Of a stretch of DNA of 35,510 nucleotides, positions 7,421 through 29,208 are shown in pieces (within the stretch, counting starts at the first letter, position 1; each line of letters starts with the position of its first letter). Under the pieces are notes generated by a model. That model did not search any database. It was not told the DNA's origin and was given only the letters and a program-made list of their open reading frames with translations. The stretch covers positions 1-35,510 of the IMG/VR virus record IMGVR_UViG_3300042377_000412. One strand, written 5' to 3'. The translations under genes and the position numbers were made by a program. Source of the stretch: a virus.

Positions 7421-7455
7421 TGGGACATACACCGTAATACTCTTACAGAGTATTA
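7421..7455 (+). ncRNA. Conserved element A: 18-base box plus hairpin
   Basis: The box TGGGACATACACCGTAAT (7421-7438) runs into a hairpin with stem AATACTCT (7436-7443), loop TAC and AGAGTATT (7447-7454). The identical 18-base box occurs reverse-complemented at 29191-29208, next to a hairpin with the same TAC loop (on that strand) but a different stem sequence. Stem changes on both sides with pairing kept argue for a selected structure. A second small hairpin, GCACC/GGTGC (7470-7482), follows. Whether it acts as RNA or as DNA is unknown. Confidence 0.6.
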
Positions 7456-7510
7456 GGGGCATTCGCTTGCACCCTAGGTGCGCGCTCGCCCCCCAGACTT
7501 ACCACCCAAG

Positions 7511-7891
7511 ATGACCGCCTACCGACCCAGCCGCCGGATCCGTACCCTCCAGCTCTGGAAGCGTCTATGGAGGGAGAACCCGGAGGGGATGGAGAAGACC
7601 CGGCTCAAGGCTACCGAGGCCGCTCAAAACACCTACCGCCAGAGGAACCAGAAGCTCGCCGCCTACGTCCAAGGCTGGCCGGACACCCTAACCAACCCGG
7701 AACTGAAGGACAGGTGTCTATTGCGCGCCGTAGAGTTTGGGTTCAAGCCGAGATCTATGAAGGTCAAACTCCGTCGCCTAGGCCTTATCGCCTATGACCC
7801 GGTACGGAAGATCTGGGTCAACCAGACGAAGCAAGACATGCAAATCGACACTTGCCTAAGAAAAGAAACGCCTCCCAATGGAGGTGCTTGA
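7511..7891 (+). CDS. Basic putative DNA-binding protein
   Basis: A 126-residue basic protein. Residues about 5-50 are rich in Arg and Lys, and the later part (LRAVEFGFKPRSMKVKLRRL, about 78-97) could be an HTH, followed by a wing-like GLIAYDPVRKIWV. ATG 7511 follows an A/C-rich leader (CTTACCACCCAAG); an alternative GTG at 7478 would start inside the structured element. Its stop overlaps the next start. It sits between element A and the late genes, so a regulator of the late arm is possible. Confidence 0.65.
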   Translation: MTAYRPSRRIRTLQLWKRLWRENPEGMEKTRLKATEAAQNTYRQRNQKLAAYVQGWPDTLTNPELKDRCLLRAVEFGFKPRSMKVKLRRLGLIAYDPVRKIWVNQTKQDMQIDTCLRKETPPNGGA

Positions 7892-8520
7892 CAACCGCAA
7901 GGTCAATTTCCAAGGAATACACCAGCTGGTGGCGTCGTCTCTCCGAGCAGGAGCGTAAGGCACTAGTCGCCTCTGGAGCTTTCCGGGCTGACGCACCGCA
8001 GGACGGGGAAGCTTTGGAAAGCAGATCTCGACTTAACGGCAACCACTTCGACTTCCAGCGCAACGAGCAGGAGTCCTTCAACCGGGTTGCCATGCGCCTA
8101 GGGTCTTTCGCCCTAGGCCGGGATCAAACCAACCCTACCGTCTCCGAGGTCGAGGCCAATGAGTCTGACGGCGCGCTCCAAGATCCTCGCCTTGCCGAGC
8201 TGGATCTCGCCTCACTACGCCTCAGGGCCACGCTTCACTTCCTGCTTGAAGGGCTGGACGAGTCTACTGACCCGGCCATGCGCCTACATGCCGACATCAT
8301 CCGCATCGTGGTAGGTGAAGGCAAGCCACCCAAGATGACCGTCCTAGCCAAGCGTCATAAGATGTCACGCGCCGCTGTGTCCCTGAGATGTCGTAAGCTC
8401 CTCCGGCGGCTAGGCCTTGAGCCGTCCCGGTTCATGCGCCCTGAGGACGAAGTGAACTCCATGCGGATCTCCTCGATCCTACGCCACGTCGATCGGCGCC
8501 ACACTAGCACCCCGGGGTAA
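7888..8520 (+). CDS. C-terminal HTH protein, candidate late regulator
   Basis: A protein of 210 residues from TTG 7888, or 222 from TTG 7852. I prefer 7888 because TTGA overlaps the upstream stop in the same way as the many ATGA junctions, and a GGAGG (7880-7884) lies just upstream; that GGAGG can pair with CCTCC at 7871-7875. Near the C-terminus MTVLAKRHKMSRAAVSLRCR and KLLRRLGL form a sigma-region-4-like HTH. The N-terminal part has no recognisable domain. Its position before the ParB/terminase genes fits a transcription factor for late genes. Confidence 0.65.
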   Translation: MTTARSISKEYTSWWRRLSEQERKALVASGAFRADAPQDGEALESRSRLNGNHFDFQRNEQESFNRVAMRLGSFALGRDQTNPTVSEVEANESDGALQDPRLAELDLASLRLRATLHFLLEGLDESTDPAMRLHADIIRIVVGEGKPPKMTVLAKRHKMSRAAVSLRCRKLLRRLGLEPSRFMRPEDEVNSMRISSILRHVDRRHTSTPG

Positions 8521-8535
8521 GAAATCTATTACCCC
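8514..8535 (+). other. Hairpin over a stop codon (weak terminator-like)
   Basis: GGGGTAA (8514-8520, containing the stop codon) pairs with TTACCCC (8529-8535) around an 8-base loop. No T-tract follows, so it is not a standard intrinsic terminator. The 102 bases from 8521 to the next gene hold only this arm, a C-rich stretch and an A/C/T leader. It may stabilise the 3' end of the upstream message. Confidence 0.4.
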
Positions 8536-8622
8536 CTACCCCCTGCTTCGTAGGTCTGTTCGCGTCCTCGGTAAAAACGCACAGTTTTAGTCAAAAAACC
8601 AAACTCTAAACCTTTTCCTGTC

Positions 8623-9495
8623 ATGATCTCCCACCACGAAGTCCTTTCGATCCCTGTCTGGGATCTGAAACCCTACGAAAACAATGCCCGGACTCATTCC
8701 CCGGAGCAAGTCGAACAGCTCACGAAAAGCATCAAGCAGTTCGGGTTTAACAACCCCATTCTAGTCCAAGACGATTTAACTGTCGTCGCTGGTCACGGTC
8801 GTCTGCTCGCGGCGAAGAAACTTGGCCTTGAAAGAGTCCCGGTGATCAAGCTCAAGCACCTCACCAAAGAACAGGTCAAGGCGTACGTCCTCGCGGACAA
8901 CAAGCTCGCCCTGAACGCCGGGTGGGATGCGGAGATCCTGAGGGACGAACTCCTTGGGATCCAAGAGTCCGGGGAGGTTGACATGGAAGCCATCGGCTTC
9001 AGCGACTCCGAGATGCTTTCCCTGATCTCGGGCGCGCAGACTTACGTCGATCCGGCTGTCGCGGCGAACACGCTTGGCCCTGCCGGACAGGTGGCGCCGG
9101 ACGAAGAGCGTCGTGACCGTCCTGAGTATTCCAAGAAGATTGACACCCCGGTGTATTCCCCGAAGGGAGACAAGCCGGACATCTCCACGCTCGTAGATCC
9201 TAACAAGACGACGGACTTGCTCCAGAAGATCGCCCTGTCCAATTGCACCCCGGACGAGAAGCACTTCCTGAACCTAGCGGCGCATCGTCACAACGTCTTC
9301 AACTACAACCTCATCGCGGAATATTACTGTCACGCCACCCCGGAGATGCAAGGCTTGATGGAGCAGTCCGCGCTGGTAGTCATCGATTTCGACAAGGCCA
9401 TCGAGAACGGCTACGTCGTCTTGTCTGAGCGACTCCAGAACATCTACTCCGAGTCGTACGAAGCCAACGAGGTCATCACCGATGATGAAGCATAA
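8623..9495 (+). CDS. ParB-like (ParB/sulfiredoxin-fold) domain protein
   Basis: A 290-residue protein with an N-terminal ParB domain at about residues 8-110: LKPYENNARTHS, GFNNPILVQ and VVAGHGRLLAAKKLG. In phages this fold is usually tied to DNA modification or acts as a nuclease or NTP-dependent clamp. The C-terminal half (about 175-290) is a different domain with conserved-looking His and aromatic residues (FLNLAAHRHNVFNYN, EYYCHATPEM); no methyltransferase domain is fused. The end overlaps the glycosyltransferase start by 14 bases, so the two are co-translated and probably work together, perhaps with ParB selecting the DNA target. Confidence 0.85.
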   Translation: MISHHEVLSIPVWDLKPYENNARTHSPEQVEQLTKSIKQFGFNNPILVQDDLTVVAGHGRLLAAKKLGLERVPVIKLKHLTKEQVKAYVLADNKLALNAGWDAEILRDELLGIQESGEVDMEAIGFSDSEMLSLISGAQTYVDPAVAANTLGPAGQVAPDEERRDRPEYSKKIDTPVYSPKGDKPDISTLVDPNKTTDLLQKIALSNCTPDEKHFLNLAAHRHNVFNYNLIAEYYCHATPEMQGLMEQSALVVIDFDKAIENGYVVLSERLQNIYSESYEANEVITDDEA

Positions 9496-10342
9496 GGACT
9501 TCGCCACCTTCATCCTTACGCATGGGCGCGCCGGACGAGTGGAGACTTTCCGCGTCCTCCGCAAGTGTGGCTACACCGGGAGGATCGTGCTGATCGTAGA
9601 CGACCAAGACAAACAGCTTGGCGATTACAAGGAAGAGTTCGGAGATCAGGTCTACGTCTTCAGCAAGCAGAAGGCCATCGAGATGACCGACGAATGCGAC
9701 AACTTCAACGATAGGCGCGCGGTAGTCTACGCCCGCAACATCTGTTGGGAGGTCGCCCGGGATCTCGGCATCAAATATTTCTTCATGCTGGATGACGACT
9801 ACAATGACTTCCGGCATAAGATGGATGACAAGAACCGCTTCATCGACCGAAGCTGGATGCGGAACATGGACGCCGTCCTCGACGCCATGCTCGACTATTA
9901 CATCAGCATCCCGGCCTTGACTATCGCGATGGCTCAGGGCGGAGACTTCGTCGGCGGCATGGACGGCACCTCTTGGCGCAAACCGAGACGCAAGGCGATG
10001 AACAGCTTCATCTGCTCTACCGACCGACAGTTCAAGTTCTTCGGCAGTACCAACGAAGACGTCAACGCATACGTCACCCTAGGATCCCGTGGGGATCTAT
10101 TCATGACGATCACGAAGGTGGCGCTCCAGCAGAAACAGACGCAACAGAACGCCGGAGGACTCACCGACATCTACAAGGCCTTCGGGACTTATGTGAAGTC
10201 ATTCTATTCGGTCATGTGCCACCCATCGTCGGTGAAGGTTTATTTTCTTCCCGGGAGCGTCGTAGATCGCATCCACCACCGCGTGACTTGGAAGCACACC
10301 GTCCCGGTCATCCTCTCGGAAGAATACAAGAAGCGTAGCTGA
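9482..10342 (+). CDS. Glycosyltransferase resembling TET-associated GT (TAGT), GT-A fold
   Basis: A 286-residue protein. The start has the look of a GT-A enzyme (FILTHGRAGRVETFRVL, then GYTGRIVLIVDDQDK), followed by DNFNDRRAVVYARN and the metal/nucleotide-sugar motif FMLDDDYNDF (about residues 101-110). This order matches my memory of the phage TET-associated glycosyltransferases that sugar-coat oxidised 5-methyl-pyrimidines in DNA. Here no TET/JBP dioxygenase or cytosine-C5 methyltransferase is seen, so the acceptor base, or even DNA as acceptor, is unproven; a protein or cell-surface glycan is the alternative. ATG 9482 or 9485 may be used. It sits between the ParB-like gene and the small terminase. 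Confidence 0.75.
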   Translation: MMKHKDFATFILTHGRAGRVETFRVLRKCGYTGRIVLIVDDQDKQLGDYKEEFGDQVYVFSKQKAIEMTDECDNFNDRRAVVYARNICWEVARDLGIKYFFMLDDDYNDFRHKMDDKNRFIDRSWMRNMDAVLDAMLDYYISIPALTIAMAQGGDFVGGMDGTSWRKPRRKAMNSFICSTDRQFKFFGSTNEDVNAYVTLGSRGDLFMTITKVALQQKQTQQNAGGLTDIYKAFGTYVKSFYSVMCHPSSVKVYFLPGSVVDRIHHRVTWKHTVPVILSEEYKKRS

Positions 10343-10938
10343 TGCCGATCAGCCAGAAGACATTGGTGGAACGCTGGGAGCTTTCCCCGGGCCGGATCTC
10401 CCAGCTTGTGGCTGAAGGGATGCCTCTGGACAGCGTGGAGGAGGCGGAGAAGTGGCGCGCCAATCGGCATCTCTCGACCGGGATCCCGCCTTCAGACTAC
10501 AAGCTGGAAGCGACCCCTCCGCCGGAACAGCCAGAGGAGACCGAGGAGAAGGAAGCCAAGACCGTCCTCGAAACATTCGACTCGATCATAGAGCGCCAGC
10601 GGATCCTCGTCCAGATCTCCCGCAACCAATACATCAAAGCGGTCAAGTCCGGGTCACCGCAACAGTCCCGGCTGTATGCTTCTTACGACAAGACGGTCAA
10701 CACCCTGACGAAGCTCAAGGCCGAGGCGGATCGCCTTGCGCTGATGAACCGGGAATACATCCGGGCCAACGACGCTACGGAGGCGATGCGTAAGCTCGCC
10801 GGGGACTTCGTCAACCGTCTGGACAAGCTCGCCCTCGATGTCGCCGAAGCATGCAACCCGGACAACCCGGCGAAGGCGGTAAAGGTTCTGGAAGCTTGGG
10901 CTTTGCGAGTCCGCGCGGATCTCTCCAAGGATGAATAA
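10342..10938 (+). CDS. terS: Terminase small subunit (Nu1-like)
   Basis: A 198-residue protein directly before the large terminase. The N-terminus holds a winged-HTH of the MerR/Nu1 type (QKTLVERWELSPGRISQLV, about residues 5-23), then an acidic Pro/Glu linker (about 55-75) and a long helical region for oligomerisation. It would recognise the packaging site and load TerL. The ATG overlaps the glycosyltransferase stop (TGATG), and the gene overlaps terL by 8 bases. It is close to lambda gpNu1 in length (181). Confidence 0.8.
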   Translation: MPISQKTLVERWELSPGRISQLVAEGMPLDSVEEAEKWRANRHLSTGIPPSDYKLEATPPPEQPEETEEKEAKTVLETFDSIIERQRILVQISRNQYIKAVKSGSPQQSRLYASYDKTVNTLTKLKAEADRLALMNREYIRANDATEAMRKLAGDFVNRLDKLALDVAEACNPDNPAKAVKVLEAWALRVRADLSKDE

Positions 10939-12751
10939 GGACGAGCTGGTCAAGATCGGGCGTGGAGTCCTTCGTCCGGCATACTCCGGCGACCCGGTGG
11001 AGTGGCTGGAGGCGAACGTCCTAGCCATCCCTGACTCTCCGATGCCCGGGCCGTTCCGGGCGGAGCGTACGCCTTGGATCGCGGAGGCCTTACGCATCGC
11101 CGCAGATCCCGAGACGAGATTGATGACCGTCCTCGCGAGCATCCAATCCGGCAAGTCATTGCTGGCGCGCCTGTTCTCCTGCTACATCATCGCCAATCAA
11201 CCCGGGCCGACCATGATCCTTCAGGCTACGGATGCCGAGGCCAAGGACTTTTCCATCCGCTATCTCCGCCCGGTCTGGAACAACTGTCCGCCCGTTAAGG
11301 CCAAGTTCAAGAACGACGACATGGAAAGGTCGACGACTTCGGACTTCGACCGCATGACGATCTACTGTCGCGGCATCCATAACGAAACCAACCTTCAGCG
11401 ACTTTCCCTGCGTTACGTCATCGCGGACGAGTGCTGGATGGCGCCGCAAGGCCACCTTGCCGAAGCGAGCGCGCGAGTGACTGCGTTCGGTTGGATGGGC
11501 AAGAGGATAATGATGTCGCAGGGAGGACAGGACGGGCAAGAGTTTCACCAGCTACACGAACAAACGGACATGCGGGAGTGGAACATGTGCTGTCCGTCCT
11601 GCGGTCATCTTCAGCCTTGGTCTTGGGGTCAGGTCAAGTTCCCGGACGACGCCAAGGTCAACGACGAGTGGGATCTCATCCGGGTTTCACAAGGGACGAC
11701 CTTTGAGTGCGTGTCATGCAAGGCGCGCCTGCCGGACACCAACGCGACCCGGCTGGAGGCCAATGCTAAGGGCAAGTTCATCTCCACCAAAGCTTCCAGC
11801 AACGCCAGCTACGTCGGACTCCATTGGAACAGCGTGGCGACGATGAGCTGGGGTGAGCTTGGCGTGATGATGATCAAGGCCAAGGAAGCCATCGAGGAGT
11901 ACGGAGACGAAGAGCCGTTGAGGATCTTCATCCAGAAGCGTCTGGCGGAAAAGTTCGAAGAACAGCCGGACGAGATTAAGACCGAGGCCAAGCCCGGGGA
12001 CTTCGCTATGTCGGAAGATTGGGAGCATGAGGGAGGGTTCGTCAAGGGTCGCCCTACCGCCTACAATCACATCACCCCGGAACAGCGCGCCGAGCCGGAC
12101 TTCGTCCGTATGAGGTTCATGGGCGTGGACGTCCAGAAGCGTGGGTTTTATTGGGTCATCCGGGGATGGTCTGGCGACGGAAGATCCCGGCTGGTCGATT
12201 GCGGTTATTGCTTCAGCTGGTCACAGCTGGCTGACGCGCATAAGAAGTATGGAGTCCACCCGGCAAATGTGTTCATCGACTCTGGCTATCAGCCGGACGA
12301 GGTGCTGGCGGCTTGTGCGTCTAACGGGTGGGTGGCGACCCGAGGTGACCAGCGCAACGAGTTCGCTTGGCGCGTGAAGACCCCGGCGGGACTCAAGACA
12401 GAGCTTCGCCCATACTCCGCCCCGGTCGTCGAGGCGGTAGGGAACAAGAGGGTCAAGCGGTTCTACTTCTCCAATCTCCGCCTGAAGGACGTCCTCGCCG
12501 CGCTCATCAAGCGAGGCAAGCACATGATCCCCAAGGACGTCTCCGACGAATACAAGGATCAGATGAAGTCCGAGAAGCGAACCATCGGCACCAATGGCAA
12601 GCCTTTCTGGGAAGCCATCGCCAAGGACAACCACTTCTGGGATTGCGAGGTCATCCTGATCCTCCCGGCCTTGGCTTGGAAGCTTACGGGACGGGTGGAT
12701 GACGTTATCTCCGAGAAGCCACCCGGGGAAGATCTCCCGGTCGAGTCTTGA
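10931..12751 (+). CDS. terL: Terminase large subunit, lambda GpA family
   Basis: A 606-residue packaging motor and nuclease. The ATPase part has Walker A ASIQSGKS (69-76) and Walker B YVIADE (162-167). Two CxxC pairs (C221/C224 and C260/C263) form a zinc-ribbon-like insert typical of the GpA family. The nuclease half starts near RMRFMGVDVQKRG (D400), continues with NVFIDSGYQPDEV, and ends with KDNHFWDCE, a GpA hallmark. Lambda gpA has 641 residues. GpA enzymes cut at cos sites, so cos-type packaging is expected; I could not locate cos itself. Confidence 0.92.
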   Translation: MNKDELVKIGRGVLRPAYSGDPVEWLEANVLAIPDSPMPGPFRAERTPWIAEALRIAADPETRLMTVLASIQSGKSLLARLFSCYIIANQPGPTMILQATDAEAKDFSIRYLRPVWNNCPPVKAKFKNDDMERSTTSDFDRMTIYCRGIHNETNLQRLSLRYVIADECWMAPQGHLAEASARVTAFGWMGKRIMMSQGGQDGQEFHQLHEQTDMREWNMCCPSCGHLQPWSWGQVKFPDDAKVNDEWDLIRVSQGTTFECVSCKARLPDTNATRLEANAKGKFISTKASSNASYVGLHWNSVATMSWGELGVMMIKAKEAIEEYGDEEPLRIFIQKRLAEKFEEQPDEIKTEAKPGDFAMSEDWEHEGGFVKGRPTAYNHITPEQRAEPDFVRMRFMGVDVQKRGFYWVIRGWSGDGRSRLVDCGYCFSWSQLADAHKKYGVHPANVFIDSGYQPDEVLAACASNGWVATRGDQRNEFAWRVKTPAGLKTELRPYSAPVVEAVGNKRVKRFYFSNLRLKDVLAALIKRGKHMIPKDVSDEYKDQMKSEKRTIGTNGKPFWEAIAKDNHFWDCEVILILPALAWKLTGRVDDVISEKPPGEDLPVES

Positions 12752-12756
12752 CATCT

Positions 12757-12772
12757 CCCGGCGCGCGCCGAG
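12757..12772 (+). other. GC-rich palindrome after terL
   Basis: A 12-base perfect palindrome, CGGCGCGCGCCG (12759-12770), lies just after the terL stop. A second hairpin, CCCGTCCC (12821-12828) / GGGACGGG (12847-12854), follows in the 130-base gap before the gpW-like gene. Neither is followed by a T-run. They may be mRNA processing or stability structures. Confidence 0.4.
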
Positions 12773-12801
12773 ACTAACCAAGCACCCTGTTAGCTCCGGG
12801 C

Positions 12802-12963
12802 ATGGACTTTCTGGGCGGCACCCGTCCCCTCTGCAATCTTTGTCATGGGACGGGCCATCTCTTTGACTGCCGCGTAGGGTCATGGCTCAGGCAACCGGGT
12901 GCTTCCTCATTCTCTCGCAAGCTCGCATCGAAGCTATTGCGGACAAAGCGTCCACGCTTTTGA
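12802..12963 (+). CDS. Possible 53-residue zinc-finger-like small protein
   Basis: An ATG at 12802 opens a 53-codon frame that contains CNLCHGTGHLFDC (residues 11-23), a CxxCxGxG motif as in DnaJ-type zinc fingers, followed by a basic tail (KLLRTKRPRF). It overlaps the start of the gpW-like gene in another frame. The frame runs through the 25-base repeat at 12862, which complicates any coding argument. It may be a real small gene or chance; confidence is low. Confidence 0.3.
   Translation: MDFLGGTRPLCNLCHGTGHLFDCRVGSWLRQPGASSFSRKLASKLLRTKRPRF
12862..12886 (+). repeat. Late-junction motif copy 1 (TTGACTsCsGCGTAG)
   Basis: This 25-base sequence runs through TTTGACTGCCGCGTAGGGTC into the ATG of the gpW-like gene. 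It is identical, including the start codon and the next two bases, to 25045-25069. Related copies are at 16100, 18190 and 19887. All five lie just before late genes that are not coupled by overlap to the gene upstream. Confidence 0.75.
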
Positions 12964-13148
12964 TGGAAGGCAAGACGATGATGACCTACACGGACTCAGG
13001 CACTTCCGTCAGCAAGTCCTTCCCGATGGACATCCAGACCACGCTGATCGAGTGTCGCTACGCCCTCCAGATTAAGGATCCCGCTCAGTACGGATCTATC
13101 GACCGAGTGCGTGTTTACAATGGACTCTGGAACTTCCGAGGCCTTTAA
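12882..13148 (+). CDS. gpW-like head-tail joining protein
   Basis: An 88-residue protein lying between terL and the portal gene, exactly where lambda has gpW (68 residues). The first part is helical (residues about 10-35, ARIEAIADKASTLLMEG) and is followed by a beta-like MMTYTDSGTSVSKSFPM, the helix-strand layout of the gpW fold. The C-terminal half (ECRYALQIKDPAQYG and on) is an extension. It would plug the connector after packaging. The start follows repeat copy 1. Confidence 0.65.
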   Translation: MAQATGCFLILSQARIEAIADKASTLLMEGKTMMTYTDSGTSVSKSFPMDIQTTLIECRYALQIKDPAQYGSIDRVRVYNGLWNFRGL

Positions 13149-13154
13149 TCTGTC

Positions 13155-14730
13155 ATGCCAAAAGATCTAACCAAGAAGCAAATCGAGAAAGCCATCCGGG
13201 ACGTCAAGGCCTACGCCAAGCGTAAAGGCCTGAAGGCGCGCGCCGATGGTTTCGGCGGTGGTGGTTCCGGGATCTTCTCTCAGTTCGAGGGTGCTAAATA
13301 TTCCAACAAGCGCCAATGGGTGAACACGCCTTGGCCGGCAGACCAGAAGAAGGTGATGACGGTTTTCGACCGTCAGGAGCTTACGCGCAAGATGCGCTGG
13401 CTGTCGGTCAACTCCGGCCTGATCCGGCAGATGATTTCGGACAATGTGGTCTACGCCATCGGAGACGGCATCCGAGGACAGGCCGCGACCAAGGACGAAA
13501 CTTGGAACGAGGCGGCAGAATATTACTTCAACGATTGGGCTAACAAGCCATGTGACATCACCGGGAGGTTCAACCTCTGGGAGTGCCAGCAGATCGCATG
13601 TCGCAAGGTCGATGTGGATGGCGAGATGTTCATCCTCAAGACTTATTCCACGGACGGGGTCGCTAAGATCCAGATGATCGAGTCCCACAGGGTCGGCACT
13701 TCTACCGCCGCCATGGGCGCGCCGGAAGGGATGTACGACGGCATCATGTTCAACAAGTACGGCGCTGTCGTTGGTTACAATGTCATTCGCTCTGACGGTT
13801 CGACCCGGCTCATCCCGTCGAACTCGATCATGCACCTGCACCACCCGGAGAACGTCTCAGGCGCGCGCGCCTATTCTCCGATGCAACACAGCATCAACAA
13901 CCTGATCGACATCCTCGAGATCCTGTCCATGGAGAAGCTGGCGGTGAAGACCGCCTCGGACATCACCCGGACTATCACTCGCGAAAACCCTCAGTTCGAC
14001 GGCACGACCGCCGACTTTGAGGCCTTCGGCATGCGTCCGCAGGATTACCCCAACGGAGTCTACGACAACCCGGAACAGGTCGGTTCCTTCATCGGCGGCA
14101 AGATCCTCTCCCTCGCCCCGGGCGAGAAGCTGGAAAGCTTCCAGAGCCAGCGCCCTAACGCCACCTTCACCGGGTTCATCGAGCATCTTCAGAAGGACTC
14201 TGCCGCCGGAGTCCTCCCGTATCAGTTCACCGCCGACCCTAACGGCATCGGTGGCGCCGCGATCCGGCTGGTAGTCTCCAAGGCCGAGCGACTTTTCGGT
14301 GCGCGCCAGCACATGTTCATGACTCGCTTCCTCACCCCGCTGTGGGGGTATGTCATCGGCAACGCCATCTCCCGGGGTGACCTCCCTCCCAACGACGAGT
14401 GGAACAAGGTCAATTGGGTCACTCCTCGCCGGGTCACGGTTGACGCCGGACGGGAGGCCTCCGCCAACCAGAAGGACATCGCCATGGGACTCAAGACTCT
14501 CTCCGACCACTTCGCGGAGCAGGGTATGGATCCTCGCGAAGAGATCCGGCGCCGAGCTTCCGACGCGAAGCTTCTCAAGGAAACCGCCGCCGAGTTCGGC
14601 ATCCCGGTGTCCATGCTCTACCAACCTTCAAACAATCCGGGAGACATCGACCAGACTATGGGCGACAATCCTTCCCCGGAAACCAAGAAAACATTCACCC
14701 CATTCCCCGAAGAACAGCCTACCGAATCCA

Positions 14731-14738
<8 letters not shown>
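13155..14738 (+). CDS. Portal protein, lambda gpB family
   Basis: A 527-residue protein placed between gpW-like and S49 protease genes. Visible signs of the lambda-type portal are LTRKMRWLSVNSGLIRQMI with a following VVYAIGDGIRG (about residues 75-108), a conserved DVDGEMF (about 155-161) and the wing/stem helices later on. The C-terminus is Pro/Glu-rich. It forms the 12-mer vertex ring through which DNA is pumped. ATG 13155 is seven bases after the previous stop, and the end overlaps the protease gene by 8 bases. Confidence 0.88.
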
Positions 14739-16099
<1,361 letters not shown>

Positions 16100-16104
<5 letters not shown>

Positions 16105-16120
16105 CTCCCGCGTAGACTCA
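16100..16120 (+). repeat. Late-junction motif copy 2
   Basis: CTTGACTCCCGCGTAGACTC spans the stop of the protease gene (TGA 16102-16104) and lies 13 bases before the ATG at 16133. It shares TTGACTcCcGCGTAG with the other four copies, and GACTC appears twice, 8 bases apart. Confidence 0.65.
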
Positions 16121-16132
16121 ATCAAACGACCG

Positions 16133-16594: not shown

Positions 16595-16625
16595 TTTCAA
16601 CCCACCCCTCACTCACTAAATAATC

Positions 16626-17540: not shown

Positions 17541-17564
17541 GCCGCAAGGCCAGAGGAAGGAAGC

Positions 17565-17592
17565 AGACCCCGGGCAACCGGGGTCTTTTGTT
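17565..17592 (+). terminator. Intrinsic terminator after the capsid gene
   Basis: A perfect 8-base stem, GACCCCGG (17565-17572) / CCGGGGTC (17577-17584), with loop GCAA is followed by TTTTGTTT. It lies 24 bases after the capsid stop. As drawn it would cut the late transcript before the tail genes, so read-through or antitermination is needed for tail expression. Confidence 0.88.
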
Positions 17593-17611
17593 TGCGCGCG
17601 ACGAACCCGGC

Positions 17612-17651
17612 CCAAAAAATAGCTTTACACCAACGTCGCTTTCTGTATAAT
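17612..17651 (+). promoter_or_regulatory. Promoter of the one-gene unit at 17757
   Basis: TTTACA (17624-17629), a 16-base spacer and a perfect TATAAT (17646-17651). The upstream CCCAAAAAATAGC and the CTTTACACC start resemble the phage promoter family, but the -10 is the full sigma-70 consensus and the spacer is one base longer. A 100-base leader follows, with a hairpin CCGGGC (17719-17724), GCAA, GCCCGG (17729-17734) before the start codon. Confidence 0.75.
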
Positions 17652-17718
17652 GTATTTTGTAAGGTTAAGTTTTCCTTACTGTTCTTTCTCAAAGTTTCTT
17701 TCCGGGTCATAGATCTTT

Positions 17719-17734
17719 CCGGGCGCAAGCCCGG
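17719..17734 (+). promoter_or_regulatory. Leader hairpin upstream of the moron gene
   Basis: CCGGGC, loop GCAA, GCCCGG sits 22 bases before ATG 17757. The same GCAA tetraloop and a CCGG-rich stem occur in the terminator at 17565. No T-run follows, so it is likely a leader structure rather than a terminator. Confidence 0.45.
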
Positions 17735-17756
17735 GATAACCAAACCACAAAAAACC

Positions 17757-18077
17757 ATGACCACAAAAGGAAAAGAAAAACCAACCGAAATCATCATCAC
17801 CGGGTTCGCGATCGCCGACAAGCGGTACGAAACTTGCACGAAGATGACCATCCGCACTTCCGAGTGCTGTGATGCGTTCTCTCCGCTCGCCAAGTTCTAT
17901 TGCATCAACATCACGATCTGGGATGACAAGGGCGGAAGTCCTTGGCACAACCATTGGATGAAAGGCCATAAGATCCAGAAGTTCAACTTCAGGACTTTGC
18001 CCGAAGCCAATGCCGCCCTCGCCCCGGCCGCGGAAGCGATCAGGGATCTCCTCCGGGAGAAAGGTTGGATGAAGTAA
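17757..18077 (+). CDS. Moron-like small protein of unknown function
   Basis: A 106-residue soluble protein with Cys (C27, C37, C38, C49), His and Trp residues in the middle (IWDDKGGSPWHNHWMKGH, about residues 54-71) that might bind metal. It has its own promoter and is enclosed by two intrinsic terminators inside the late operon, the classic layout of a moron, a gene added for the benefit of phage or host rather than for virion assembly. Start: ATG 17757 after the A/C-rich leader CCAAACCACAAAAAACC. It is unrelated to anything else in the window. Function is unknown; superinfection exclusion or anti-defence are only guesses. Confidence 0.8.
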   Translation: MTTKGKEKPTEIIITGFAIADKRYETCTKMTIRTSECCDAFSPLAKFYCINITIWDDKGGSPWHNHWMKGHKIQKFNFRTLPEANAALAPAAEAIRDLLREKGWMK

Positions 18078-18085
18078 AGAACAAG

Positions 18086-19444: not shown

Positions 19445-19446
19445 CC

Positions 19447-19902: not shown

Positions 19903-19908
19903 ACTCAA
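19887..19908 (+). repeat. Late-junction motif copy 4
   Basis: CTTGACTCCGGCGTAGACTC covers the final codons and stop (TAG 19900-19902) of the tail terminator gene and lies 16 bases before ATG 19924. It matches copy 2 except for one base in the CCCG/CCGG part. Here the motif is inside coding sequence, unlike the other copies. Confidence 0.6.
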
Positions 19909-19923
19909 CACTAAGCGACCCTC

Positions 19924-20265: not shown

Positions 20266-20287
20266 TCCCCTCCCGGGGATACCACCA

Positions 20288-20869: not shown

Positions 20870-20872
20870 CCT

Positions 20873-22072: not shown

Positions 22073-22078
22073 AACACC

Positions 22079-22942: not shown

Positions 22943-24531
22943 TGGAAGACCTTGGCTTCAACGGATCCGGGTCGCGCTTCAATTCAAGATTTGAAGCCGG
23001 ATCTCCTATCCAAGCGAAACAGCTTAACGACCTAGCGGCCGGAGTTCAGGCAAGCTTGCCGATGCCTTATCTTGGTGACGGCGCGTCGGTTTCCTTCACT
23101 CCGGGTGGCGCCGTAATCACTACTACGCCGTCCGTATTCACCAAAGGTGCAGGCGGCGGAACTTACTACAATCAGTTTCAATGCGTGGTCACCGAGGAAG
23201 AAGACGAGGACGGGGACTTAGCTTGGTATCTTCAGATCGTGAAGGGTTCGGTCGTCTACGGAAACGACAAGCAAGCCACTCAAGTCGGGATTGATGCCGC
23301 TACTCCGGGATCTCCCGCAACGGTGACCGTGGTAGAAGGAGACGACCCAGACTCAATCTTTACGGAGAAGGGTGGCTATTACATCCTTGGAGAAGATGTT
23401 TCTTGGAGCGTCTACTTGGTACACATCAAGGTCACGGAGACAGATAAGCACTTCACCTATCTGTATATCGCTGACCAAGACACCTACAATTATCCGAGCA
23501 ACAATTTCGTCGCTTACGGAGTAGACGACACCCCTCCGGGACTAGACACCCCGGAAACAGCATACACGATGAGCGTCGTCCAGATCGCGCAGATCATCTG
23601 GGACGCGACAGACAAAGCATACACGTTGTCTCAGGAGCTTATCGGGACTCAGTCGTTGCCGACAATCACTCCGCCTATTCAGTTCGCCGTCGATGTGATC
23701 AACCGGGAGAAGGACATCACCAAGCAACCGGATTGGCTTTTGCGCGTCGCAAAGGGTGTCGTGCTTTACCCTCCGGATCTCCCGGGCGGGTGCGCCAATG
23801 TTCAATGGGTTGATGAAGTCTCTCCGATTGTCGGCCCGGTCATCGGAGACTATCAAGACTCTCCGTATACGAACCGCGGAGGTGGTGTTAACGTAACCCG
23901 GACGCTCGATTACGACGTCTATCTTTTCTTGGTCAGAGAAGAAGCTGGCTCAGGTGTCAACCCTGTTTTATGGGTTGGACCAACGGCAAACTACGAAGAC
24001 AAGTGCCCGGTCGAACTTCCAGAGGACATCAGGCCTCCCGGTCCGTACACGGCGCAGTCTGTTCACATCGCCTTCGTCGAGCAGAAGGACACGACTTCCA
24101 ACACTTGGGTGGTCAATCAGATTGTTCAGGGAACAGTCACAGTTCCTGATGACGGAGAAGCAGACAGACATCCGTTCTTCATTTACTTCAGGCCGGGAAA
24201 TGACGGCGCGTTCGATTGGAGTTACAAGGTTGGCTCAGTCAACAATGTGATGCTTCCTCCTGATGAGGGGCCATGGTCTACGGACACCGGCGACGGCTAC
24301 ATCGTCTTGAGAGCGCAGTATGTAGAGCCAGACTACCCTCAGAACCCAGACGGGGTATCGATCAATTTCTTTGCTACAATCCCGCCAGATACAGACGAAT
24401 TCGGACGCATCGCTCTCGCTCAGATTACAGGCGGCGGTAAGAAGATTAATCAGCTCGTCACGGGATCTCTCTGGTCTAACCGCATCAAGCTTGGACTTAA
24501 TACGGCCCGCTATTTCTGGGCGCGGATCTAA
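22942..24531 (+). CDS. Tail tip/baseplate protein with three internal repeats
   Basis: A 529-residue acidic protein. I see three related units. Each has an aromatic strand pair (DLAWYLQIVKGSVVYG; DWLLRVAKGVVLYP; DWSYKVGSVNNVMLP), then a second strand block (VSWSVYLVHIKVTE; DYDVYLFLVREE; GYIVLRAQY) and a closing block before V-G-SLP or V-GSLW (IAQIIWDATDKAYTLSQ; HIAFVEQKDTTSNTWVVNQ; IALAQITGGGKKINQL). Such triplication fits a structural or receptor-binding part of the tail tip. No enzymatic motif is visible. ATG 22942 overlaps the upstream stop. Confidence 0.7.
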   Translation: MEDLGFNGSGSRFNSRFEAGSPIQAKQLNDLAAGVQASLPMPYLGDGASVSFTPGGAVITTTPSVFTKGAGGGTYYNQFQCVVTEEEDEDGDLAWYLQIVKGSVVYGNDKQATQVGIDAATPGSPATVTVVEGDDPDSIFTEKGGYYILGEDVSWSVYLVHIKVTETDKHFTYLYIADQDTYNYPSNNFVAYGVDDTPPGLDTPETAYTMSVVQIAQIIWDATDKAYTLSQELIGTQSLPTITPPIQFAVDVINREKDITKQPDWLLRVAKGVVLYPPDLPGGCANVQWVDEVSPIVGPVIGDYQDSPYTNRGGGVNVTRTLDYDVYLFLVREEAGSGVNPVLWVGPTANYEDKCPVELPEDIRPPGPYTAQSVHIAFVEQKDTTSNTWVVNQIVQGTVTVPDDGEADRHPFFIYFRPGNDGAFDWSYKVGSVNNVMLPPDEGPWSTDTGDGYIVLRAQYVEPDYPQNPDGVSINFFATIPPDTDEFGRIALAQITGGGKKINQLVTGSLWSNRIKLGLNTARYFWARI

Positions 24532-25034
24532 TGGGAACAGTAGTCAGGACTTGGGCAGATCATCTGGCGCCGATTGATGCTACGCCTTATGGATCTGCTG
24601 AGATAATCGGCAGGTGGGATTTCTTTGTTCCGGGAAGCCAGAACCTGATGACCAAGGAATATGTGAACACCGAAGGCAAGCCCGTGACTTGGTTCACGGC
24701 GGAAGACGGCTCGCTTTTCTTTTATCCGTTCGGAAGGGTCACCGGGTTTTACCTGAACCTTGGAGACGGCCCTTTTGACTATCTGATGCACCAGATGTTC
24801 TTGGGCGACAGGCCAAATACATCACCCGGAACAGAATTTATCTTTGGGTTCGTCTACCTGATTGACAGCGATTTCTCAGAGATGATTGGGCAAAATGTGA
24901 CTTGCGAGAACGCTGGGTTTACAATCACAGAAGAAGGCAGGCTTGATGCTGGGTCTGGCGGACAACTATTGACTCCTCCCGAGGAAGGTTATGGGGACAT
25001 CGTTTCTTGCCAGAAGCTTGCCCCGGTGACCTGA
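24531..25034 (+). CDS. Tail-associated protein of unknown function
   Basis: A 167-residue protein rich in aromatic and Gly residues (RWDFFVPGSQNLM; GSLFFYPFGRVTGFYLNLG), which looks beta-rich and virion-associated. It is coupled to the upstream tail tip gene by TAATG. Its place before the fibre genes suggests a tail tip or fibre adaptor. I do not recognise a family. Confidence 0.65.
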   Translation: MGTVVRTWADHLAPIDATPYGSAEIIGRWDFFVPGSQNLMTKEYVNTEGKPVTWFTAEDGSLFFYPFGRVTGFYLNLGDGPFDYLMHQMFLGDRPNTSPGTEFIFGFVYLIDSDFSEMIGQNVTCENAGFTITEEGRLDAGSGGQLLTPPEEGYGDIVSCQKLAPVT

Positions 25035-25044
25035 CGCGCCGGGT

Positions 25045-25069
25045 TTTGACTGCCGCGTAGGGTCATGGC
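25045..25069 (+). repeat. Late-junction motif copy 5
   Basis: This copy is identical over 25 bases to 12862-12886. It runs through TTTGACTGCCGCGTAGGGTC into ATG 25065. It begins 10 bases after the upstream stop codon and therefore lies in non-coding DNA. Confidence 0.75.
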
Positions 25070-25391
25070 GGCGCCTACTATCATCTGGAAGCGGGGACAG
25101 ACCTTTGTGGCAACCGGGCCGTATGTCCCGGGTCAGGGAGATCCGGCAAACCTTTCCGGGGTGACCATCCAGAGCGAGGTCCAAGACCACTCCAAGCGCC
25201 GTTTCCCGCTGGCCGTGACCATCGGAGGCGACAACATCACCGTCACCCTGCGCGCCGAAGCTTCTGAGACGGCCACTTGGGATGTCGGAACCGCCGCGAT
25301 CGATCTTCGTTGCATCAAGGACGGGGTCGTCTTCTCGACCACGACCGTCCGTTTCGTCATCGAACAGGAGATCACTTTGCCCAATGGCTAA
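25065..25391 (+). CDS. Small Ig-like/beta-sandwich tail protein
   Basis: A 108-residue protein starting MAAPTIIWKRGQTFVATG and continuing with GDPANLSGVTIQSEVQDHSK, a layout I know from small phage proteins placed just before fibre genes (beta-sandwich, similar to BppU N-terminal-type domains). It probably links the fibre to the tail tip. The gene overlaps the fibre start by 8 bases. Confidence 0.6.
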   Translation: MAAPTIIWKRGQTFVATGPYVPGQGDPANLSGVTIQSEVQDHSKRRFPLAVTIGGDNITVTLRAEASETATWDVGTAAIDLRCIKDGVVFSTTTVRFVIEQEITLPNG

Positions 25392-27516
25392 CATCGAACT
25401 CGTCCTCACCCCGGCATCCCCGACGGGATCTATGGTTTTCACGCTCGGCGCTCCCGGGCCGCAAGGCCCAGCCGGACCGCAAGGCAATCCCGGCCCACAA
25501 GGTCAGCCGGGTGTAGGCGTACCGACGGGAGGATCCATTGGTCAGTTCTTGACTAAGACGGGCGCGCCGGACTTCGCGACCGGGTGGACGACCCTTTCCT
25601 TGGCTGGCTACGCCACCGAGTCTTGGGTTCAGGCCGGGTTCTATCCCCTTACGGGCAACCCTTCAGGCTTCATCACCAACGCCGCGCTGGCGCCGTACCT
25701 GACTTCAGCGACCGCCGCTTCGACCTACCAGACTCTCGCCGGGATGTCGGCCTACGCGACGCAGTCCTTCGTCACCTCGCAGGGTTACATCACCAGCGCG
25801 GATCTTTCACCTTATCTCCTTAGCTCGACTGCGGCCTCGACCTATGCCGTGATTGCGGCAGGACAGCCCGCATCTGGTACTGTCGGTCAGGTTCTAACCA
25901 AGCAGAGTGGTTCTGACTACGACTCCAGCTGGCAGACCCTTATCCCGGGAGACCGATACCTGACGACCTCGACGACGAGCCTGACCATCAACAACGACAA
26001 CAAGACCCTAACCGTCGGCACGGGTCTGTCTTACACCTTGCAGCAGGATGTGATCATCGCATATGATGCGAACAACCATATGCACGCTCAGGTGTTGACC
26101 TACAACTCGGTCACAGGCGTGATGACGGTCGATGTTCGCAGTCACTCCGGCTCGGGCACGTTCTCGCTCTGGACGGTCAACGTCGGCGGCACGGTGCCGA
26201 TGGCCTCTATCGTTTGGGGTGACATTACCGGGATCTTAGGAAATCAAGCCGACCTATCTTCCGCGCTGAACGCCAAGTTGGAAGTTACCACTGCCGCTTC
26301 GACGTATTTCACCATCGCTTCGGCTGCGGGCAAGGCGAACCTCTCTGGGGCGACCTTCACGGGTAAGGTCAACTTGCCCACCCGAGTCTCTGGTGGTGAA
26401 GCAAACCTCAACCTCGGTGCGATCCCTGATAATCTTTCCGCACCGACCACGCTCGTCGCTGGAGACGTTTTTCTGACGGACATCGAGCCTTCTACGGGGA
26501 ACTTTAACACCCGACTAAACTATGTAGGTCGGACTTTCTCCGGCGCGCTTGCCACCATCCAACTTGCCGCGCTCAACGGCGTTTCAAACTTCTTCAGCCA
26601 GACGCAGACGGTCGTAGTCACTAGCACGACCCCTGCAGTCAGGATTCAGCAACTCGGAACCGGCGACGCCTTCCGAGTGGAAGATGAGAACCCGGAAAAC
26701 AGCCCCTTCGTCATCAATCAGTTCGGCAAGGTCGGCATCGGCGTCGCCCCGGATGCGACCGCCGCGCTGAAGGTGGACACGAACGGCATCATGTTCGGCA
26801 ACGGGTCTGTCCAGACTGTGGCCGCTAATCCGTTCACCGGCGGAGCAATCACCAGCCCGATTACCTATGCGGGTGCTGTTTACAACTCTCAGTTCGGAAG
26901 CGATTTGATTGAAGTGAAAGTCAACGGCTCCAGCGACCAGTCGTATCAAGCCGCAGGAGGGTTTTACACTTCTTACAATCAAATTGTTCCTAGCGGTGGC
27001 ACCAGTCTCAGGCAGGTCTACATTGATAAAGATGGGTTGAGCAACACCGAGGAACTTACCAGCCTCGGCGGTCACAATGTGTTCATCAAGCCGACGTTCT
27101 TCTCTTCTTCCGTATACCTTCCGTCTGAGCAAACCGAGTCTTTTGAACTCACGAAAAACGGCATCCAATGTCAGCGCGTCAATCCTGCCGGAGGAGGTTA
27201 CCAGACCATCAGGTTTTCAAACGACGGCGTCCAATTCTCTGACGGAAGTGTTCAGACGAGTGCTGCCAATACTAGCGGTCTTGCTAGCGAGTCTTGGGTA
27301 AGCTCTGGGTTCTACCCACTCAGCGGAAACCCGAGCGGCTTCATCGACTCCTCTACGGCTTCTTCCAGCTTTTACCCTCTGAGCGGAAACCCTTCTGGCT
27401 TCATGTCCTCACCGGGAAGCGGTTCGTATGTCTGGTATTCTGGAGGTTGGTATTCTGCTAACCTGACCACCGTCCTCGACTCCTCTTACAACTACGTTAA
27501 TGTCCTCACCTTCTAA
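25384..27516 (+). CDS. Collagen-like tail fibre protein
   Basis: A 710-residue fibre. After a short N-terminal domain there is a Gly-X-Y collagen-like run (residues about 18-42, GAPGPQGPAGPQGNPGPQG), then a trimerising repeat region with SFYPLSGNPSGF-type units (GFYPLTGNPSGFI early; two copies near the C-terminus) and TAASTY units. It is a likely receptor-binding fibre. ATG 25384 is chosen; the frame further upstream overlaps the small tail gene. The stretch 26870-27480 has AT-richer codons than the start, which suggests exchange of the receptor-binding end. Confidence 0.85.
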   Translation: MANIELVLTPASPTGSMVFTLGAPGPQGPAGPQGNPGPQGQPGVGVPTGGSIGQFLTKTGAPDFATGWTTLSLAGYATESWVQAGFYPLTGNPSGFITNAALAPYLTSATAASTYQTLAGMSAYATQSFVTSQGYITSADLSPYLLSSTAASTYAVIAAGQPASGTVGQVLTKQSGSDYDSSWQTLIPGDRYLTTSTTSLTINNDNKTLTVGTGLSYTLQQDVIIAYDANNHMHAQVLTYNSVTGVMTVDVRSHSGSGTFSLWTVNVGGTVPMASIVWGDITGILGNQADLSSALNAKLEVTTAASTYFTIASAAGKANLSGATFTGKVNLPTRVSGGEANLNLGAIPDNLSAPTTLVAGDVFLTDIEPSTGNFNTRLNYVGRTFSGALATIQLAALNGVSNFFSQTQTVVVTSTTPAVRIQQLGTGDAFRVEDENPENSPFVINQFGKVGIGVAPDATAALKVDTNGIMFGNGSVQTVAANPFTGGAITSPITYAGAVYNSQFGSDLIEVKVNGSSDQSYQAAGGFYTSYNQIVPSGGTSLRQVYIDKDGLSNTEELTSLGGHNVFIKPTFFSSSVYLPSEQTESFELTKNGIQCQRVNPAGGGYQTIRFSNDGVQFSDGSVQTSAANTSGLASESWVSSGFYPLSGNPSGFIDSSTASSSFYPLSGNPSGFMSSPGSGSYVWYSGGWYSANLTTVLDSSYNYVNVLTF

Positions 27517-27703
27517 ACTCTACATCCCGGTCGAGGCCGGCAAGGTCGGCGTATATTACGACCCGATCACCAAGGTCATCTCGCATTACGCAACGTACCC
27601 GCACAAGGGAACCATCGTCACCGCCCTCCCCGTGATCGTGGCCGACGACGAAGCCGCCCTCAAGGTCGCCATCGCAAAAGCCGGACTCATCGAACGCAAA
27701 TGA
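27500..27703 (+). CDS. Small protein after the fibre (possible fibre cap or chaperone)
   Basis: A 67-residue soluble protein (MSSPSKLYIPVEAG, then KVGVYYDPITKVISHYATYP). ATG 27500 lies inside the last codons of the fibre gene (17-base overlap), so the two are coupled. Small genes in this place often act as fibre chaperones or C-terminal caps; this is inference from position. Confidence 0.65.
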   Translation: MSSPSKLYIPVEAGKVGVYYDPITKVISHYATYPHKGTIVTALPVIVADDEAALKVAIAKAGLIERK

Positions 27704-27807
27704 TCTACATCATCACCCTCGCTATTGGTTACGCCGCCGGAGTCTACCGAGAGAAGATCTCGGAGAAAGCCCGCGAGCTTTACATCAAGATCTCCGAGCG
27801 CCGATGA
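27700..27807 (+). CDS. 35-residue membrane-anchored small protein
   Basis: The ATG overlaps the upstream stop (ATGA) and the stop overlaps the next ATG, so this frame is closed in on both sides by translational coupling, which supports it as a gene. Residues 2-16 (IYIITLAIGYAAGVY) form an N-terminal membrane segment, followed by a charged helix (REKISEKARELYIKISERR). It is the size and layout of a small inner-membrane lysis accessory or pinholin-like peptide. Confidence 0.65.
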   Translation: MIYIITLAIGYAAGVYREKISEKARELYIKISERR

Positions 27808-28505
27808 GGTTCGCGTGGCTGGCCTTCCTGCTTGCTGGATGCTCCTCCAAGCCGGAGAAGATCCCAACCCAGCCTACCACGCCCTCCGCCGCCGCCAAGC
27901 TGGAGTCCGGCATCGACACGCGATCCTCCAAGGTCGCCGCCGCCGTCACGGTCGTGAAAGAGAACGCCGGGAAGCCCGAGGTGGTCAAGGCGGAGTCCGC
28001 GCTCGCCCTGTCCTTCCTGCCTACGCCCTCCGAAGGGGACGTCGCCCTAGCACGACAGCGCGCCGGGAAAGCGGATCAGAAGGACTACGACGAGGCGGTC
28101 AAGTTCGGCAAGAACATCCTCGCCCAGATCGACGACGCCCGGGTCAAGATGGACGCCGACCGCCGGGAAGCCGCCCGGATCTCCGGGATCAAGGACGCGC
28201 GCATCGCCGAGCTGACCAAGGAGATCGAGACGGTCAAGAAGGAAGCCGCCGCGAACATCTGGACTCTCACCGGGGCGGGGCTGGTCGTCGTCGGCGGTCT
28301 GGCCTGTGCCTTCTCCTCGATCCGCATTGGGATCCCTATCATCGTCTGCGGAGCTTTCGCCGGATCTCTCCCGTTCTTCTTCGACTCCGCGTACTTCGGG
28401 GTCATCGCTACAGTCACCCTAGCCATCGTCGCCGGACTCGGTGTCTGGTGGATCTACGACCGGGTCAAGGACTCGGTCAACGAAAGCGATGTCAAAGCCG
28501 ATTAA
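27804..28505 (+). CDS. Lipoprotein with C-terminal membrane segments (lysis or envelope protein)
   Basis: A 233-residue protein. The N-terminus is a lipoprotein signal, RFAWLAFLLAGCSS, with lipobox LAGC and Cys13. A Lys/Glu/Ala-rich coiled coil follows (to about residue 150), then three hydrophobic segments in residues about 153-225 (LTGAGLVVVGGLACAFSS; GIPIIVCGAFAGSLPFFF; GVIATVTLAIVAGLGVWWIY). A lipid anchor plus transmembrane helices in one chain resembles a unimolecular spanin, but those have a single C-terminal helix, so this is unusual. The gene sits in a lysis-like cluster. Confidence 0.65.
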   Translation: MRFAWLAFLLAGCSSKPEKIPTQPTTPSAAAKLESGIDTRSSKVAAAVTVVKENAGKPEVVKAESALALSFLPTPSEGDVALARQRAGKADQKDYDEAVKFGKNILAQIDDARVKMDADRREAARISGIKDARIAELTKEIETVKKEAAANIWTLTGAGLVVVGGLACAFSSIRIGIPIIVCGAFAGSLPFFFDSAYFGVIATVTLAIVAGLGVWWIYDRVKDSVNESDVKAD

Positions 28506-28785
28506 GGTCGTCTGGCGCAAGCTAGGCCGGGAGGTGGCTTGGGGTCAGGCGCACTTCGACGCGGCGCGCCCGCTGATCGAGATGGATCCCCGGCTCGGAG
28601 CCAAGCGACAGCTGGAAGTCCTCTGCCACGAAGTCCTCCACATCACCATGTTCCCGGGAGACGCCTCCCCGGAGACGGAGAAGATCGTGGACGCCGCCGG
28701 GAAGAAGCTTTGCGAGACTCTCTGGCGCCAGAACTACAGGCGCGTCCTGCTCGACAAGAACACGAACCCGCCGAAGATCTCATGA
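28489..28785 (+). CDS. HExxH putative metallopeptidase
   Basis: A 98-residue protein with HEVLH (residues 47-51, in LCHEVLHITMF), the zincin-type zinc-binding motif, and a Glu further on (ASPETEK) that could be the third ligand. It is too short for a full peptidase domain of a known large family, but such mini-HExxH proteins occur in phage late regions. ATG 28489 overlaps the lipoprotein gene by 17 bases; the longer frame from 28441 is less likely. It overlaps the holin-like gene by ATGA. Confidence 0.65.
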   Translation: MSKPIKVVWRKLGREVAWGQAHFDAARPLIEMDPRLGAKRQLEVLCHEVLHITMFPGDASPETEKIVDAAGKKLCETLWRQNYRRVLLDKNTNPPKIS

Positions 28786-29090
28786 GTCCGACCCCGAACC
28801 CGGACGAGATCCCGGTCAGCTTGCGAGACATCGGGATCGGCGTGACCATCGGCGCCACCTCTTGGATGGTTCGTTACTTCTGTTCGCCGGAGAAGCACAC
28901 GCTGGGATACATTGCGCGCCGGACGGTCGTCGCCGGGTTGACGTCTCTGCTGGTGGGGCTGGCCACGCAGTCGTACTTCTCCAACCCGGGACTAGGCTAT
29001 GCCGCCGCCGGGATGGCTGGGTATGCCTCCCCGGAGCTAGTGGACGCTGGGCTGGCTTGGATCCGTCGCCGGGGTAAGTCTAAGGGTTGA
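28782..29090 (+). CDS. Holin-like small membrane protein
   Basis: A 102-residue protein. Residues about 17-33 (GIGVTIGATSWMVRYF), 48-65 (TVVAGLTSLLVGLATQSY) and 70-92 (GLGYAAAGMAGYASPELVDA) can form two or three membrane segments, and the end is basic (RRRGKSKG). That pattern and its last place in the late operon fit a holin. The partner lysin is the secreted transglycosylase-like protein at 32403, which is in another operon. Confidence 0.6.
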   Translation: MSPTPNPDEIPVSLRDIGIGVTIGATSWMVRYFCSPEKHTLGYIARRTVVAGLTSLLVGLATQSYFSNPGLGYAAAGMAGYASPELVDAGLAWIRRRGKSKG

Positions 29091-29176
29091 GGGTCAAACG
29101 GCCTCCTGAGGCCAGCCAGAGGGGTAGAATGGCCTAGTGCGACTGACACCCCACCCGGGGTGGAGGGAAGCACTTA
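29091..29176 (+). other. 3' intergenic stretch with rearranged repeat words
   Basis: This part of the late 3' end carries the reverse complements of GCCGTTTGACCC (29091-29102) and ACCCCTCTGGCTGGCC (29110-29125) found at 18125-18148, the palindrome-like GGCCTCCTGAGGCC, and CCACCCGGGGTGG. No open frame is convincing. Confidence 0.4.
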
Positions 29177-29208
29177 AATCCCTGTAAGGGATTACGGTGT
29201 ATGTCCCA
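29177..29208 (-). ncRNA. Conserved element B: inverted copy of the 18-base box plus hairpin
   Basis: On the minus strand this reads TGGGACATACACCGTAAT (29208-29191) into a hairpin with stem AATCCCT / AGGGATT (29193-29177) and loop TAC. It is identical in the 18-base box and loop to element A at 7421 but differs in stem sequence while keeping pairing. It lies after the last late gene and just before the late terminator. Confidence 0.6.

What the first reader, a model, noticed from the sequence alone, without database searches (positions are those of the whole stretch)
7421..29208. Inverted 18-base box with covarying hairpins brackets the whole late arm
TGGGACATACACCGTAAT at 7421-7438 recurs exactly in inverse orientation at 29208-29191. 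Both copies run into a hairpin with loop TAC, but the stems differ (AATACTCT/AGAGTATT versus AATCCCT/AGGGATT) with pairing kept. One copy lies before the first late regulators, the other between the last late gene and the late terminator. If one transcript covers the arm, its 5' part and its 3' end could pair over 18 bases (a panhandle) and the hairpin loops (CTTACAG/CTGTAAG) could pair too. Other options are an inverted binding site for a recombination, replication or packaging protein. I know of no described element of this form.
Basis: partly seen in the sequence, partly recalled or inferred. Interest (0 to 1): 0.85.

Follow-up and report, generated by a model that had tools for sequence, protein, structure and literature searches.

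The report
Paired phage regulatory RNA, inverted copies
The short repeat is the front end of a previously undescribed, strongly conserved folded RNA that sits just before a late-regulator gene in a family of phages probably infecting Verrucomicrobiota; this phage carries a second copy pointing the other way, and the two copies share their exposed parts but not their stems, so both probably answer to one regulatory partner.

Summary
The repeat and both hairpins are real. The 18-bp inverted match is not significant by length alone; its significance comes from what follows it. Each copy opens a ~66-nt two-helix element (leader CACCGTAAT, hairpin P1, forked hairpin P2). A covariance model built only from first-site copies finds the window's second site unaided (E=2e-5). 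Across 33 distinct sequences from relatives, 20 of 22 pairs show two-sided changes (161 cells against 46±5.5 shuffled). Rfam has no match. In every first-site copy with enough sequence, the element lies a few to 60 nt before the start codon of one small protein family (126 aa here, modelled as helices plus a winged helix), itself followed by a conserved helix-turn-helix protein. The inverted second copy also occurs in two related contigs (G017, L180); ten other near-complete records lack it. The copies bracket the early arm as much as the late arm. In the window lineage the box (GCC to CAT) and P1 loop (UAAA to UUACA) changed identically at both sites while stems and P2 stayed site-specific, so the copies share a ligand or contact each other. 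Best reading: a cis-regulatory leader RNA for the late-regulator operon, with a second copy engaging the same factor. Panhandle pairing is possible but not required; inversion is unsupported.

The parts
7421..7438 (+). site 1 box / 5' leader TGGGACATACACCGTAAT; its 3' half (CACCGTAAT) is the leader of the family
   Evidence: leader conserved in relatives
7435..7455 (+). site 1 hairpin P1 (TAATACTCT/TAC/AGAGTATTA)
   Evidence: two-sided changes across relatives
7456..7492 (+). site 1 hairpin P2: outer stem GGGGC/GCCCC, middle CGC/GCG, inner GCACC/GGTGC
7511..7891 (+). gene directly downstream: 126-aa 'WKRxW' family protein, predicted long helices plus winged helix; the leader element lies before this family in every complete site-1 case
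7852..8520 (+). conserved helix-turn-helix-like protein, putative late regulator
   Evidence: alignment A9; no Pfam/PHROG match
29191..29208 (-). site 2 box, identical to the site 1 box
29177..29193 (-). site 2 hairpin P1 (AATCCCT/TAC/AGGGATT)
29136..29174 (-). site 2 hairpin P2: outer stem AGTGC/GCACT, inner CACCCC/GGGGTG
   Evidence: found by a model built from site-1 copies only; orthologues in L162 and L180
29215..29234 (+). intrinsic terminator of the late arm, just beyond site 2
29290..29317 (+). degenerate copy of the early promoter-like repeat (CTTTAAC-N15-TACTTA), pointing away from site 2
   Evidence: read; repeat family at 6633, 31209, 32841; intact copy at the same place in G017
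29087..29112 (-). weak terminator-like hairpin (GGCCTC/GAGGCC then GTTTG) downstream of site 2; L180 has the compensated GGCCCG/CGGGC then TTTTG
   Evidence: position approximate, weak in G017 and G003

Best explanation
The box is the 5' leader of a two-helix structured RNA (P1 hairpin plus forked P2 hairpin, about 66 nt) made as part of the transcript that runs from the replication genes into the late-regulator genes. SHOWN: the structure is under strong selection across a phage family, and it sits just before the start codon of one small protein family, with a helix-turn-helix protein next. INFERRED: it is a cis-regulatory leader that sets when or how much of this late-regulator pair is made, by binding a trans-acting factor (the encoded winged-helix protein itself, another phage protein, or host RNA polymerase/ribosome) through the unpaired box and the P1 loop, while the stems serve as scaffold. 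The window phage and its close relatives carry a second, inverted copy beside the first early promoter that presents the same box and loop, so the same factor probably acts at both places, most simply through a short leftward RNA that mimics the leader.
For: Covariation: 92% of cells paired, 20 of 22 pairs with two-sided change, 161 double-change cells against 45.8±5.5 shuffled and 15-30 when slid. The model built from site-1 sequences only recovers site 2. Fixed position before the WKRxW gene in all complete site-1 cases, 10 to about 120 nt after an upstream gene where measurable. Few G-U pairs, but clearly internal ones (L222, L078) occur on the sense strand. Crossing pattern: stem and P2 follow the site (window site 1 = L006 37/37; window site 2 ~ L180 37/40) while box and loop follow the genome (18/18 and UUACA in the window; 18/18 and UAAA between L006 and L180). 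WKRxW model pLDDT 89; weak best PDB matches are mostly winged-helix regulators. No match in 388 genomes of the L176 MAG's phylum (insensitive) or in Rfam.
Against: No expression data. Site 2 has no gene downstream on its strand, and no convincing leftward promoter was seen. The concerted change rests on one lineage and two characters. Stems are almost purely Watson-Crick, so a DNA-level hairpin is not excluded. The trans-acting factor is not identified. A few relatives of the downstream gene lack the element or P2 (L220, L224, L249).
Confidence: 0.5

Rival explanations
1. A put-like RNA: the nascent two-stem RNA binds the elongating host RNA polymerase and makes it resistant to terminators, so that transcription runs into the late arm; the inverted copy does the same for a leftward transcript.
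For: Same size class and two-stem layout as HK022 putL/putR (PMC9378689); two copies in opposite orientation; terminators inside the late arm that a late transcript would have to cross (17565-17586); host polymerase as common ligand would explain the concerted box and loop change.
Against: The model does not match HK022 (best 13.6 bits, E=0.38); site 1 is about 760 nt from the nearest promoter-like repeat and is between genes; site 2 faces no leftward genes; most relatives have one copy.
Confidence: 0.17
2. Panhandle or antisense pairing: plus-strand transcripts carry site 1 as sense and site 2 as its complement, and the boxes (18 bp) and P1 loops pair to control the late transcript or the regulator leader.
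For: Perfect 18-bp complement in the window; box and loop changed together at both sites; own-genome duplexes of window and G017 are stronger than their mixed ones.
Against: G006 and other one-copy phages keep the element; the same pattern follows from a shared ligand; G017 has two box differences inside the paired part; the unpaired P2 features of the sense strand are kept at site 2, which antisense pairing does not need.
Confidence: 0.1
3. A DNA hairpin signal for replication, such as a single-strand initiation or priming site on each strand, used with the AAA_25/DnaB-like helicase encoded just upstream of site 1.
For: Almost purely Watson-Crick stems; position next to the helicase gene in most relatives; two copies on opposite strands as in RSF1010 ssiA/ssiB (from memory, not tested).
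Against: Fixed spacing before one start codon; clear G-U pairs on the sense strand only; no primase found among the proteins scanned; most near-complete relatives have the signal on one strand only.
Confidence: 0.1
4. Inverted recombination site that flips the segment between the copies.
For: Exact inverted box.
Against: Stems and P2 differ between copies; every related record examined has the same relative orientation of the arms; no recombinase seen next to either site.
Confidence: 0.02

Closest known systems
HK022 putL / putR antitermination RNAs
   Same: About 70 nt, two stem-loops with internal bulges, two copies in oppositely oriented transcripts of one phage (PMC9378689)
   Different: No sequence/structure match to the model; between genes before a regulator gene rather than just after early promoters; usually one copy; function untested
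Autogenous translational operators of phage mRNAs (such as those reviewed for T4, PMC3014915; title and abstract only read)
   Same: Structured leader directly before the gene of a predicted nucleic-acid-binding protein
   Different: No binding shown; unrelated protein family; large conserved two-helix structure; an orphan inverted copy elsewhere in the genome
Lambda nut sites (boxA plus boxB hairpin)
   Same: Linear box followed by a hairpin in a phage transcript
   Different: P1 loops are UAAA, UAC, UUACA, UUUCA rather than the boxB loop; second forked hairpin; no N-like gene identified
RSF1010 ssiA/ssiB single-strand initiation sites
   Same: Hairpins on opposite strands; phage encodes an AAA_25 helicase
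   Different: Kilobases apart, fixed before one start codon, most relatives have one copy, no cognate primase found

Membership tests
HK022 put RNA | about 70-nt RNA with two stem-loops | tested here: met
   put description
HK022 put RNA | sequence/structure homology to putL or putR | tested here: not met
   R2 search of HK022: best 13.6 bits, E=0.38, 40 nt
HK022 put RNA | located downstream of early promoters in two operons | tested here: not met
   site 1 lies between genes about 760 nt after the nearest promoter-like repeat; no leftward genes at site 2
HK022 put RNA | antitermination through the RNA polymerase beta' zinc-binding domain | not testable with these tools
   needs transcription assays
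Autogenous phage leader operator | structured element in the leader of its own regulator gene | tested here: met
Autogenous phage leader operator | encoded protein binds the element and represses it | not testable with these tools
   winged-helix model only
Any described Rfam family | match at gathering score | tested here: not met
Lambda nut site | boxB-type hairpin loop and an N-like protein | tested here: not met
   loops read; an N-like protein was not searched for specifically
Invertible recombination site | segment found in both orientations in relatives | tested here: not met
   same arm orientation in the related records mapped
RSF1010-type ssi site | priming site recognised by a dedicated primase | tested here: inconclusive
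   no primase domain in the 20 proteins scanned; not all proteins scanned

The most novel reading that the evidence does not exclude
One phage RNA module used twice: as the cis leader of the late-regulator mRNA and, inverted beside the early promoter, as a short leftward RNA mimic of that leader that titrates the same factor, so the two copies form an early/late switch and must keep the same exposed box and loop.
Probability: 0.2. Interest if true: 0.78.

Novelty: new variant of a known kind. Interest (0 to 1): 0.62.

Why it matters
It is a new, statistically secure structured RNA family in uncultured phages probably infecting Verrucomicrobiota, whose gene regulation is almost unknown. It marks the early-to-late junction and points to a previously unnamed regulator gene pair. 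The doubled, inverted form, with stems free to drift but box and loop evolving in step, tells an experimenter which nucleotides are likely contacted.

Tried and rejected
Length of the inverted repeat as evidence (rejected: 18-bp matches occur in shuffles). Known RNA families (none). Sigma-70 promoters just upstream of either site (none convincing; near shuffled background). Site 1 as intrinsic terminator (no U-run after P2). dsDNA operator (stem sequences differ between the two sites of one genome). Gene conversion between sites (would have carried the stem lying between box and loop). UNCG-type tetraloops as proof of RNA (dropped: those loops read better as UAC or UUC triloops). A pseudoknot between CCG of the leader and the P2 loop (not consistent). 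Prophage or host copies (no match in 388 genomes of the L176 MAG's phylum; filters strict, so weak). PDB and Foldseek for the WKRxW protein (nothing significant). AlphaFold of the 7852-8520 protein (pLDDT 58, not used). MAFFT alignment of divergent copies misregistered the stems, so the seed was padded by hand.

Full report
OBSERVATION. The 18-base word is at 7421-7438 (+) and 29208-29191 (-), with no other near match, and both copies run into the hairpins described. The length of the match is not itself remarkable: two other 18-bp inverted matches exist, and 12 of 60 Markov shuffles reach 18 or more. The window is a closed circle (185-bp terminal overlap, one mismatch), so the copies delimit the early arm (29209 round to 7420, 13.5 kb) as much as the late arm. 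They point outward from the early arm.

WHERE IT IS. The contig is a tailed phage. Its nearest named TerL is in Verrucomicrobia phage P8625 (24% identity). Site 1 starts 2 nt after the stop of a pyrimidine-dimer-glycosylase-like gene and ends 18 nt before the start of a 126-aa protein, followed by a 222-aa helix-turn-helix-like protein. Site 2 lies between the last late gene and the late terminator (29215-29234), about 80 bp from a degenerate early promoter-like repeat. Contig ends of relatives coincide near 8553-8566, so the virion order is probably cos, late arm, site 2, early arm, site 1, the two regulator genes, cos, as for late regulators in lambdoid phages (comparison from general knowledge).

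WHAT IT IS. Reading relatives at the same place showed that the box is only the 5' end of a larger element: leader CACCGTAAT, hairpin P1, then a forked hairpin P2. A covariance model from six site-1 sequences recovered the window's site 2, which was not used to build it, at E=2.2e-5 in 781 kb. A second model found the element in further contigs. On 33 distinct sequences, 92.2% of cells pair, 20 of 22 pairs have two-sided changes, 161 cells carry such changes against 45.8±5.5 in shuffles and 15-30 in slid controls, and the covariation score is 0.539 against 0.141. The alignment was fitted to the structure, which inflates these figures somewhat, but the margin is very large. Rfam has nothing.

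CONTEXT. Every site-1 copy with enough sequence lies just before the start codon of the same protein family (typically 13-60 nt, alignment). AlphaFold gives a confident model with two long helices and a C-terminal winged helix (pLDDT 89); PDB matches are weak (E at least 0.17) but mostly winged-helix regulators after the first hits. The next gene is very conserved with a C-terminal helix-turn-helix-like segment. Both being late regulators is inference from position and fold.

THE SECOND COPY. Whole-record scans show that ten near-complete relatives (27-36 kb) have only site 1: G003, G004, G006, G007, G008, G012, G435, G438, G440 and G446; an unfiltered scan of the G006 junction also found nothing. 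The inverted site 2 exists in G017 (L162: 18949-19013 + and 5411-5475 -, with the same 13.5 kb early arm between) and in the contig L180. Comparing copies gives a crossing pattern: stems and P2 follow the site (window site 1 and L006 identical in P2, 37/37; window site 2 and L180 37/40; window site 1 against site 2 24/40), but box and loop follow the genome (window sites 18/18 and UUACA; L006 and L180 18/18 and UAAA; both G017 sites GGGAGCC and UAAA). In the window lineage the same changes, GCC to CAT in the box and UAAA to UUACA in the loop, therefore occurred at both sites. Gene conversion would have carried the stem between them. This leaves a shared ligand or direct contact between the sites.

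MECHANISM. I favour a cis-regulatory leader of the late-regulator operon read by a trans-acting factor through box and loop, with site 2 presenting the same surface, perhaps on a short leftward RNA. A weak terminator-like hairpin follows site 2 on that strand, with two compensatory changes between window and L180, but no leftward promoter was recognised, so this step is speculative. The put-like rival fits the layout and size but not homology or position. Panhandle pairing fits the concerted change but cannot be the primary role, since one-copy phages keep the element. A DNA-level role is not excluded because stems are nearly free of G-U pairs; the clear internal G-U pairs fall on the sense strand, which is mild support for RNA.

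VERDICT. A real, new, conserved structured element, very probably RNA, ordinary in kind (phage leader RNA) but undescribed, with an unusual doubled inverted form.

Noticed in passing
8553-8566: Contig ends of relatives coincide here (L001 ends and L004 begins with the same 14 nt GGTCTGTTCGCGTC; other contigs start in the homologous region): likely cos end of the virion genome.
   Followed up: partly
12862, 16100, 18190, 19887, 25045: Five + strand copies of TTTGACTSCCGCGTAGRSTCA in the late arm, at least two directly before start codons, none expected by chance; possible late regulator sites or translation signals.
   Followed up: no
6633, 31209, 32841 (degenerate at 29290): Repeated early promoter-like module CTTTACA-N15-TATCTA on the + strand, also beside site 2 in G017.
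   Followed up: partly
17565-18077: Moron-like insertion after the major capsid gene: own terminator (17565-17586) and sigma-70-like promoter TTTACA-16-TATAAT (17624) before a small ORF.
   Followed up: no
9482-10342: TET-associated glycosyltransferase (PF20691) next to a ParB-like gene: hint of DNA base hypermodification.
   Followed up: no
31779-32129: Sub-threshold ArdA-like antirestriction protein match, E=1e-5.
   Followed up: no
L047, L049, L052, L076 upstream of the element: Distant subfamilies share a 5' flank GGTATANTTCCGTA before P1, doubled in L076: possible binding box or promoter part.
   Followed up: no
L220 around 1500: A relative that keeps P1 (GTAATATACC/TAC/GGTATAT) but has no recognisable P2 before the same gene.
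   Followed up: no
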